Source: Acidisoma sp. L85 (lineage in GTDB: Bacteria; Pseudomonadota; Alphaproteobacteria; Acetobacterales; Acetobacteraceae). From it: 32,768 bases of DNA. This document shows, one piece after another, positions 31,276 to 32,768 of the stretch. Both the position numbers and the translations under genes were made by a program. The notes beneath the pieces are model-generated. The model had not been told where the DNA came from and ran no database searches. It was given only the letters and a program-made list of their open reading frames with translations. The stretch covers positions 164,412-197,179 of the forward strand of contig NZ_LMUQ01000039.1 of assembly GCF_009765865.1 (NCBI RefSeq), given 5' to 3'. Position 1 is the first letter of the stretch. Each line of letters opens with the position of its first letter.

Positions 31276-32160
31276 ATGAACCCCATCGGCATCCATGCCT
31301 TCGTCTGGTCGGCCGGCTCGACCCCTGCGGATCTCGATCGCGCGCTCGAACGCTCCTCGGAGCTTGGCTACACGCTGATCGAATTCCCTCGTCTCGACCC
31401 GAAGAAATTCGATGTGCCCTCCTTCGCCCGCAAGATGGCGGAGCGGAAAATAGGCATCGCCGTGACGATGGGACTGCTGCCCGCGAACGACATCTCCAGC
31501 GAGGACGCAAGCGTCGTCGCGGCGGGCGAGCGCGTGTTGCTGGAAGCGGTGTCGGTCGCCCGCGATCTCGGGGCCAAGAAGCTCGGCGGCATCCTGTTTT
31601 CGGCCCATAGCAAATACATGACCATGCCGACGGCGCGCGGCCGGCAGAACAGCATCGACACCATCCGCAAAGTCGCGCGCGCCGCGGCTGCCGCTGGCGT
31701 CACCCTCAACCTCGAAATCGTCAATCGCTTCGAGAGCAACCTGCTGAACACCACGGCCCAGGGTCTCGCCTTTCTCGAAGAGGTCGGCGAGCCGAATGTC
31801 TATCTCCATCTCGATGTCTTCCACATGAACATCGAGGAGGCCAACCCCGCCGACGCCATTCGCGCCGCCGGTGACCGGCTCGGCTATTTCCATATCGGCG
31901 AAAGCAATCGCGGCTATCTCGGCGCCGGCACCATCGAGTTTCCGCCAATTTTCGATGCGCTGCTCGACAACGGCTATACCGATACCGTGACGTTCGAATC
32001 TTTTTCCTCCGCTGTGGTGGACAAGGATCTCTCGATCATCACCGGGATCTGGCGCAACACCTGGGACGACAATATCGATCTCGCGCGCCACGCCCACGCC
32101 TTCATCACCGACCAGTTGACCAGCGCGGAGCGCCGCCGCCGGATCACCCGCACGCCCTGA
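31276..32160 (+). CDS. Ketose 3-epimerase-like sugar isomerase (DTE/DPE family)
   Basis: The 294-residue TIM-barrel protein matches D-tagatose/D-psicose 3-epimerases. Its metal ligands Glu147 (LNLEIVNRFE), Asp180 (HLDVFH), His206 (YFHIGES) and Glu241 (TFESFS) have the spacing known from the Pseudomonas cichorii enzyme, shifted by five. Glu147 and Glu241 would also be the proton-transfer pair. It would interconvert ketoses at C3, such as fructose and psicose. It begins 38 bases after the mannitol dehydrogenase gene, in the same direction, and the two probably form an operon for a rare polyol or ketose. Confidence 0.9.
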   Translation: MNPIGIHAFVWSAGSTPADLDRALERSSELGYTLIEFPRLDPKKFDVPSFARKMAERKIGIAVTMGLLPANDISSEDASVVAAGERVLLEAVSVARDLGAKKLGGILFSAHSKYMTMPTARGRQNSIDTIRKVARAAAAAGVTLNLEIVNRFESNLLNTTAQGLAFLEEVGEPNVYLHLDVFHMNIEEANPADAIRAAGDRLGYFHIGESNRGYLGAGTIEFPPIFDALLDNGYTDTVTFESFSSAVVDKDLSIITGIWRNTWDDNIDLARHAHAFITDQLTSAERRRRITRTP

Positions 32161-32256
32161 CAATTGGTAGCAAGCGCGGGGCGTGGTGCGCGGCTCCGCC
32201 GGTCTAATTCAGGGGGTGAAGTCACATCTCACGAGTTTGAGCCGGGCCTTCCCCCA

Positions 32257-32305
32257 CGTCATGCTCGGCGAAGGCCGAGCATCCACGCCTTCGCGTGCCA
32301 TGACG
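32257..32305. repeat. Palindromic intergenic element, copy 3 (complete two-hairpin form)
   Basis: The 49-base element has an outer stem CGTCATG (32257-32263) pairing with CATGACG (32299-32305) around two hairpins. Hairpin 1 is ATGCTCGGC (32261-32269), loop GAAG, complement 32274-32282. Hairpin 2 is CACGC (32284-32288), loop CTTC, GCGTG (32293-32297). Outer stem and hairpin 1 share two base pairs at their junction. It is the simplest of three related copies in this window and lies about 100 bases after the epimerase stop. Confidence 0.8.
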
Positions 32306-32342
32306 AACCACGGGGCAGCGGCTCAGCATTAGATCATCACGT

Positions 32343-32381
32343 TTAGTCAAGGCGGCTCTCAAACGCTCACCGGCTGACTAA
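32343..32381. promoter_or_regulatory. Separated inverted repeat upstream of the SulP leader
   Basis: TTAGTCA (32343-32349) and its complement TGACTAA (32375-32381) are 25 bases apart. As half-sites they are spaced too far for one dimer; as a hairpin they would form an imperfect stem with CGG/CCG inside. It may be a terminator for the epimerase operon or a regulator site for the SulP gene. No T-run follows. Confidence 0.3.
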
Positions 32382-32410
32382 GCGCCACTTATGTTGCACC
32401 GCCGCAAAAC

Positions 32411-32561
32411 CTAGGTTACGGTCCAGGCATTCGCCTCGGACCCGGTGTAAATCCGGGTGGCTCTTCCGGCCGCCAATCCGCCGGACAACGCATACGACAC
32501 GAGTATCGAGCATCGGGGCAGCCGATGCCGCCCTCGCGCGCTTACTGCGGACACCCCGATG
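32411..32561 (+). ncRNA. Candidate structured 5' leader (cis-regulatory RNA) of the SulP gene
   Basis: At least three strong hairpins precede the start codon: GGTCC-AGGC-ATTC-GCCT-C-GGACC (32420-32442), ACCCGG-TGTAAAT-CCGGGT (32440-32458, overlapping the first), and TCCGGC...GCCGGA (32465-32485). Two further pairings exclude each other: GCATCGG (32510-32516) with CCGATGC (32522-32528), and CATCGGGG (32511-32518) with CCCCGATG (32554-32561), the latter burying the ATG at 32559. This is the layout of a translation-controlling switch. The sulfate-permease-associated alphaproteobacterial sul1 RNA is one possible identity; I cannot confirm the match from memory of its consensus. Confidence 0.55.
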
Positions 32562-32768
32562 AACACACACGCGTTGTCTCGCTACCGTTCCGAATGGTTC
32601 ACCAGCTTCGGCGATCTCCGGCGCGAGGTTCTCGCCGGGATGGTGGGCACCTTCGCCCTCATCCCCGAGGTCATCGCCTTCTCTTTCGTGGCGGGCGTCG
32701 ACCCTGAGGTTGGGCTCTTTGCCTCCTTCATCATAGGCATCGTCATCGCCTTCACAGGCGGCCGTCCC
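32559..32768 (+). CDS. SulP-family anion transporter (partial, C-terminus beyond the right edge)
   Basis: Seventy residues are visible from the ATG at 32559. They read [39 protein letters not shown], then [13 protein letters not shown], which is the start of the SulP membrane domain; helix 1 has the family proline in [10 protein letters not shown] and [10 protein letters not shown] matches the usual GVxPxxGLYA. SulP proteins carry sulfate, bicarbonate or other anions across the inner membrane. GCGGA lies eight bases before the ATG as a weak ribosome-binding site. The start codon is inside a potential base-paired element of the leader, so translation may be controlled by RNA structure. Confidence 0.85.

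What the first reader, a model, noticed from the sequence alone, without database searches (positions are those of the whole stretch)
32411..32561. Switch-like structured leader before a SulP transporter gene
The segment CATCGGGG can pair either locally (7 bp with 32522-32528) or, over 8 perfect pairs, with the sequence containing the start codon (32554-32561). Upstream are three hairpins that could form a ligand-binding domain, also with a mutually exclusive choice at 32438-32445. This is the classical arrangement of a translational riboswitch. It could be the sul1 motif or something undescribed.
Basis: partly seen in the sequence, partly recalled or inferred. Interest (0 to 1): 0.7.

Follow-up and report, generated by a model that had tools for sequence, protein, structure and literature searches.

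The report
sul1 RNA leader of SulP gene
The stretch holds a copy of sul1, an RNA element already catalogued in front of transporter genes in alphaproteobacteria, and comparison with relatives suggests that it controls translation through a different base-paired stem from the one first proposed.

Summary
The leader is a full-length member of Rfam sul1 (RF03058): window 32435-32490, 78.5 bits, cut-off 36.2. The arm 32420-32424 of the other alternative lies in the -10 box of a promoter conserved in 113 of 134 leaders. What covaries is a stem, here called P3, pairing the bases right after sul1 (32489-32492) with those over the ribosome-binding site (32546-32549): z -10.1, 0 of 2000 permutations. 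I read it as a translational OFF switch; polarity and ligand are inferred. Sulfate as ligand is doubtful: the closest solved transporter is SLC26Dg, assayed with fumarate; about 25 of 85 loci have a Usp gene next; eight sul1 copies precede glycosyltransferase, acyltransferase or methyltransferase genes. Known kind; modest interest.

The parts
32394..32399 (+). -35 box TTGCAC of the conserved promoter
   Evidence: TTG-N18-21-TA found upstream of sul1 in 113 of 134 leaders, against 5 of 132 and 3 of 132 in two control stretches and 8.5 on average in shuffles; the single-sequence promoter scan reported no + strand site in 31500-32768
32417..32422 (+). -10 box TACGGT; transcription start inferred at about 32429-32430
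   Evidence: TA lies 19-21 nt before GGACCC in 101 of the 113 leaders with the motif, 21 nt in the window; start site inferred, not measured
32435..32490 (+). sul1 RNA (RF03058), full 56-position match
   Evidence: cmscan 78.5 bits, gathering score 36.2; one match in the genome
32440..32458 (+). sul1 hairpin P1
   Evidence: Rfam structure line; in the outer part one pair with changes on both sides (2 cells) among 31 sequences; the innermost pair fails in 22 of 31
32459..32474 (+). candidate pseudoknot GGC 32459-32461 with GCC 32472-32474 (proposed here)
   Evidence: 31 of 31 sequences keep the three pairs, but nearly invariant, so no covariation test
32465..32485 (+). sul1 hairpin P2 with conserved loop CGCCnAUCC
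   Evidence: Rfam structure line; two pairs with changes on both sides, 8 cells; outermost pair fails in 4 of 31
32489..32492 (+). 5' strand of P3 (CGCA), 3 nt after P2
   Evidence: own-against-permuted pairing with the pre-start region: z -10.1, 0 of 2000; P3 is not in the minimum-energy fold of the window alone
32498..32538 (+). inner stem CACGAG 32498-32503 with CTCGCG 32533-32538, one A-C mismatch in the window
   Evidence: inner region e8-26 against -40..-15: z -7.6 over 135 leaders, 0 of 2000
   Evidence: sequence; local hairpins of unlike sequence seen by eye in other leaders listed
32546..32551 (+). TGCGGA: 3' strand of P3 (TGCG) overlapping the ribosome-binding core GGA, 7 nt before the ATG
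   Evidence: TGCG in 58 and TGCGGA in 44 of 136 leaders at -18..-4; TGCG together with CGCA after sul1 in 52 of 139 leaders
32559..32768 (+). start of the SulP (SLC26-like) transporter gene; runs past the window end to G000:C59:198523 (position 5524 of L031)
   Evidence: Pfam Sulfate_transp and STAS on the 363-residue C-terminal piece; the N-terminal 61-residue piece matches Sulfate_transp below its cut-off; closest solved relative 5da0, E 4e-116

Best explanation
It is a sul1 cis-regulatory RNA that controls translation of one SulP anion transporter. Transcription starts at about 32430, just before sul1. The sul1 fold (P1, P2 and probably a GGC/GCC pseudoknot) is the sensing domain. Directly after it, a stem (P3) pairs the 3' edge of sul1 with the bases at and just before the ribosome-binding site, with an inner stem and a variable hairpin closing the loop. 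Because P3 starts 3 nt after P2 and does not compete with it, the likeliest mode is that the ligand-bound aptamer stacks on and steadies P3, hiding the ribosome-binding site: an OFF switch. Shown: family membership, conserved promoter sequence, covariation of P3 and of the inner stem. Inferred: transcription start, ligand binding, polarity, translational rather than other control.
For: sul1 match 78.5 bits. P1/P2 plus pseudoknot in 31 sequences: 93.3% of cells paired, 11 cells with double changes against 1.7 in shuffles, 0 of 500; a rival hairpin inside sul1 shows none. P3: z -10.1 and inner stem z -7.6, both 0 of 2000 permutations; controls with unrelated stretches z -1.1 and -1.3. P3 changes as a unit: CGCA/TGCG (window and many others), CACAACG/TGTTGTG in three Sphingomonas, ACATCA/TGATGT in Novosphingobium (L133), ACCCTG/CAGGGT in L143 and L153, TCCAG/CTGGA in two Devosia and two Microvirga, CAGC/GCTG in L038 from the window's genus. 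Conserved promoter directly upstream: 113 of 134.
Against: No binding, expression or start-site data. By a plain threshold (4 or more pairs, 2 or more G-C) P3 is met by 92 of 136 leaders against 68 on average and at most 80 in permutations, so a third of leaders lack it by that measure. Permutations do not correct for relatedness, and start codons were picked by a rule that favours GGA-like sites. In the window P3 is only 4 pairs. P3 does not overlap the invariant aptamer core, so how a ligand would move it is conjecture. The strict promoter form TAnnnT is met by only 28 of 134, and the consensus scan saw no + strand promoter.
Confidence: 0.57

Rival explanations
1. One reading: 32511-32518 chooses between the local hairpin and the start codon (32554-32561), at least in this genome.
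For: Both pairings exist; the long one is in the minimum-energy and centroid folds; 1% of shuffles have such a start-codon complement.
Against: No covariation: z -0.2 and +0.8 over 136 leaders; perfect complements of 7 or more over the start codon in 1 of 136, 6 or more in 8 of 136. L038 from the same genus keeps only CATCG/CGATG by eye.
Confidence: 0.11
2. ON switch: without ligand the UCCGC of P2 (32477-32481) pairs with GCGGA (32547-32551), opening P2 and hiding the ribosome-binding site; ligand closes P2 and frees it.
For: The complement is exact in the window and TGCGGA precedes the start in 44 of 136 leaders.
Against: sul1 is near invariant there, so no covariation test is possible. Where the ribosome-binding site departs (GCGAAG in L124, GCGAA in L108, GCGAG in L098), CGCA/TGCG is kept but the UCCGC complement is lost. 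40 of 136 leaders have no GGA at -16..-4.
Confidence: 0.15
3. sul1 is not a riboswitch but a protein- or small-RNA-bound leader, or an RNA stability element, and P3 is a plain structural cap.
For: No ligand is named in anything I read; the targets fall into two unlike groups (SulP/Usp, and transferase genes of surface-polysaccharide type).
Against: Compact core with invariant loop and possible pseudoknot, fixed place between promoter and ribosome-binding site; Rfam types it as a riboswitch.
Confidence: 0.15

Closest known systems
sul1 RNA, Rfam RF03058
   Same: Full-length match at 78.5 bits, same P1/P2, upstream of a SulP gene like 143 of 157 non-duplicate loci; by their titles nearly all the named relatives are alphaproteobacteria (two are titled only Proteobacteria), with one oddly labelled exception, L062.
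   Different: Nothing in the core. The conserved promoter and the P3 platform described here lie outside the 56-position Rfam model; whether the original description mentions them I could not check (paper not held).
Riboswitches that hide the ribosome-binding site in or next to the aptamer pseudoknot (preQ1-II, SAM-II type; recalled)
   Same: Works like: short, possibly pseudoknotted domain next to a stem that reaches the ribosome-binding site.
   Different: No family relation found: Rfam gave no other family in 32300-32768 at E up to 1. No ligand shown.
SLC26Dg (5da0), fumarate-transporting SLC26 protein
   Same: Closest solved relative of the transporter's 363-residue C-terminal piece, E 4e-116; the next different transporter, 6ki1 (listed as low affinity sulfate transporter; BicA by recall), is at 1e-21.
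   Different: Substrate of the window's protein untested; SLC26Dg is from Deinococcus geothermalis (passages of PMC6497670).

Membership tests
sul1 (RF03058) | covariance-model score over the curated cut-off, full length | tested here: met
   78.5 bits against 36.2, positions 1-56 of 56
sul1 (RF03058) | P1 and P2 supported by covariation in relatives | tested here: met
   31 of the 43 distinct model-found rows: 93.3% of cells paired, covariation 0.111 against 0.051 shuffled, 0 of 500; weak for the inner part of P1
sul1 (RF03058) | located upstream of a SulP-type transporter gene | tested here: met
   SulP start codon 68 nt after the end of sul1; Pfam Sulfate_transp and STAS
riboswitch | binds a small ligand directly | not testable with these tools
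   needs in-line probing or equilibrium dialysis
riboswitch | conserved link from aptamer to an expression platform | tested here: met
   P3 between the 3' edge of sul1 and the pre-start region, z -10.1; link to ligand state not tested; P3 absent from the window's own minimum-energy fold
   z -0.2, 829 of 2000 permutations as good

The most novel reading that the evidence does not exclude
sul1 does not sense sulfate for sulfate uptake but a signal shared by two responses, an SLC26Dg-like anion transporter (often with a Usp stress protein) and surface-polysaccharide modification, through a P3 stem over the ribosome-binding site that is not part of the family model.
Probability: 0.35. Interest if true: 0.6.

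Novelty: new member of a known kind. Interest (0 to 1): 0.33.

Why it matters
sul1 has no ligand in anything I could read. Knowing where its transcript probably starts and which stem reaches the ribosome-binding site makes it directly testable with reporters and probing, and the second group of target genes (glycosyltransferase, acyltransferases, methyltransferases) argues for screening signals beyond sulfate. For this window itself the result is ordinary: a good copy of a catalogued RNA.

Tried and rejected
Upstream alternative at 32438-32445: rejected on the conserved promoter. Pairing of the AUCC loop of sul1 with GGA of the ribosome-binding site as a general rule: dropped, since 40 of 136 leaders have no GGA at -16..-4. 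A rival hairpin inside sul1 (32456-32462 with 32468-32474), favoured by the fold of 32405-32580 and by RNAalifold on 40 leaders, keeps 96.3% of cells paired but has no double change, and the fold from 32430 shows P1 and P2 instead. The same RNAalifold run gave CGCA/TGCG but not Rfam's P1 and P2, and did not resolve the hairpin part, which does not align. Other Rfam families in 32300-32768: none at E up to 1. sul1 in the phage collection: no match. A polysaccharide flippase after sul1 in Lichenicoccus (L006/L146) and an acyltransferase in L136 were set aside as probable rearrangements: by eye the leader runs into a SulP-like N-terminal remnant and a transposase-like frame is near. A genome-wide control for how common TGCGGA is before starts could not be made and was dropped. 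Papers: searches that named the RNA or its accession gave PMC7371854 (passages read, lists the family) and, seen in listings only, PMC10636060 and the plant review PMC8933713; one search gave none, and of the 12 papers (10 listed) I looked into one, PMC7266159.

Full report
What is there. The fold of 32405-32580 beats shuffles (z -2.40, 7 of 200 as good); the fold from the inferred transcription start, 32430-32575, does not (z -0.73, 44 of 200). Both contain the 8-pair helix. Against simple shuffles of the window an 8-pair start-codon complement is found 1% of the time, but some 8-pair perfect helix is found in 19% of shuffled leaders.

What it is. Rfam finds one family in the whole window at its gathering score, sul1 RF03058, at 32435-32490 on the + strand, 78.5 bits with a cut-off of 36.2, all 56 positions. 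It is the only match in the genome, and one SulP-like protein was found there with a 363-residue piece of the transporter as query. The start codon 68 nt after sul1 opens a SulP transporter with a STAS domain; the window cuts it, and a stretch of it just beyond the window is masked. The closest solved relative of the 363-residue C-terminal piece is SLC26Dg (5da0, E 4e-116), well ahead of 6ki1 (1e-21). SLC26Dg is assayed as a fumarate transporter (passages of PMC6497670).

Relatives. A model search found sul1 in 37 of 395 genomes of the order and in 11 of 385 drawn from the class, 9 of these 11 over the cut-off, the window's own genome counted in both. After removal of duplicates 157 loci remained, of 168; 143 have a SulP start downstream and 14 do not. 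The 14: L041, L168 and L169 are probably false (one barely over the cut-off and inside an open frame by eye, two below the cut-off); L142 is cut off after 179 nt but looks like SulP by eye; L006 and L136 look rearranged; L039 and L072 have no clear target; L054, L085, L112, L076, L125 and L128 precede methyltransferases or acyltransferases.

Aptamer. On 31 of 43 distinct model-found sul1 rows (near-duplicates left out by hand, one row empty) the Rfam P1 and P2 plus a GGC/GCC pseudoknot that I propose give 93.3% paired cells and 11 doubly changed cells against 1.7 in shuffles, 0 of 500. P2 carries clear exchanges (C-G for G-C in L040, L165, L167; A-U in L033; G-C for C-G in four rows). The pseudoknot is kept in 31 of 31 but hardly varies, so it is not proven. 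The outermost P2 pair fails in 4 and the innermost P1 pair in 22 of 31. A rival hairpin within sul1 (32456-32462 with 32468-32474) that some folds prefer is 96.3% paired with no double change. The fold from 32430 shows P1 and P2.

Promoter. TTG-N18-21-TA lies directly upstream of sul1 in 113 of 134 leaders, against 5 of 132 and 3 of 132 in two stretches further upstream and 8.5 on average in shuffles; the TA is 19-21 nt before GGACCC in 101 of the 113. The stricter form with TAnnnT is met by 28 of 134 against 0 of 132 and 0 of 132. In the window this is TTGCAC 32394-32399 and TACGGT 32417-32422; the simple scan did not report it.

Platform. For 136 leaders of 143 (those with 50-115 nt between sul1 and start) I compared pairing energies of each leader's own two segments with those after permuting partners among leaders. 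Segment just after sul1 against -18..-4: own -4.49, permuted -3.12 (sd 0.14), z -10.1, 0 of 2000. Wider cut: z -6.8, 0 of 2000. Inner stem: z -7.6, 0 of 2000; it also holds within the 53 leaders with CGCA/TGCG (z -4.5), and P3 and the inner stem hold in the rest (z -4.8, -4.7). Controls: upstream DNA against pre-start z -1.1; post-sul1 against coding z -1.3. Identical segment pairs were dropped before each test (n 130-136 for the full set, as printed). Limits: permutation ignores relatedness, and start codons were chosen by a rule that likes GGA-like sites. By a plain threshold 92 of 136 leaders have a P3 of 4 or more pairs against 68 on average and 80 at most after permutation; 75 of the 92 overlap -14..-6; 39 different P3 sequences occur. 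In the window alone the energy model does not choose P3.

Mechanism. P3 begins 3 nt after P2 in the window, so it can coexist with the folded aptamer; ligand binding that steadies the P2-P3 stack would hide the ribosome-binding site. I therefore favour an OFF switch. The ON alternative (UCCGC of P2 against GCGGA) is possible in the window but is lost in leaders that keep CGCA/TGCG with GCGAAG, GCGAA or GCGAG. Ligand, polarity and the level of control are inferred.

Targets and ligand. Next to the SulP gene, about 25 of 85 loci with a complete SulP frame have, by my reading of the translations, a universal stress protein directly downstream; three of three scanned match Pfam Usp, and annotated plasmids show the same order (in 48 away from the sul1 match). 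By eye no sulfate-assimilation gene stood out among the next frames, many of which are spurious frames. Among plasmids, 140 records hold a sul1-like stretch, many of them strains of one species. Of nine regions that I picked by hand and fetched, eight are annotated: six have SulP next, one a GT4 glycosyltransferase whose likely start is about 60 nt after sul1, upstream of the annotated one (Cereibacter sphaeroides 2.4.1 plasmid pDE), and one an acyltransferase (Paracoccus marcusii pMARC4). With the six cases above (for the second Inquilinus copy, L085, from the reading of its frame only) that makes eight loci in five genera. That these transferases act on surface polysaccharide is inferred from their families; a methyltransferase like that of L112 could do other work. 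Several of these loci have long leaders, and P3 was not tested there. This weakens a simple sulfate sensor but names no ligand.

Literature. Rfam types sul1 as a riboswitch. The describing paper (Weinberg and others 2017, recalled) is not held; from recall it linked sul1 to sulfate transporters. PMC7371854 lists sul1 among riboswitch families (passages); the orphan-riboswitch review PMC7266159 has no occurrence of sul1 (find). I found no paper with a ligand; the library lacks most subscription journals.

Verdict.

Noticed in passing
L176:6001-7333 (Cereibacter sphaeroides 2.4.1 pDE), L178:6001-7400, L128, L054, L085, L112, L076, L125: sul1 copies in front of a glycosyltransferase, acyltransferases and methyltransferases instead of SulP; in Inquilinus limosus Inq and Methylobacterium longum a SulP-linked copy exists as well (L156, L119).
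   Followed up: partly
L175:6126-8486, L177:6102-8451 and about 25 loci: SulP followed, in most of these loci within about 20 nt, by a universal stress protein gene, suggesting a SulP-Usp operon under sul1.
   Followed up: partly
L040, L165, L167: A divergent sul1 subtype with P2 rebuilt (GGCCCGG...CCGGGA) and a shortened P1 loop, same conserved loop CGCCUAUCC.
   Followed up: no
L164:1501-1564: sul1 copy 8 nt longer than the model, in the P1 loop, with a changed P1 (ACCCGC...GCGGGT).
   Followed up: no
window upstream of sul1, about 32394-32407, and relatives: By eye many leaders continue the -35 TTGC with a near-palindromic TTGCaatGCAGCAA-like stretch, which might be a regulator site overlapping the promoter; a base count made covered only 7 leaders and settles nothing.
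   Followed up: no
G389 (same genus as the window's genome): No sul1 match in this congener, while G283, G378 and the window's own genome have one each.
   Followed up: no
L062 (same locus as L015, G336): A record titled Solirubrobacterales carries a sul1-SulP locus identical to that of a genome placed in the window's own family, so the title is probably wrong.
   Followed up: no
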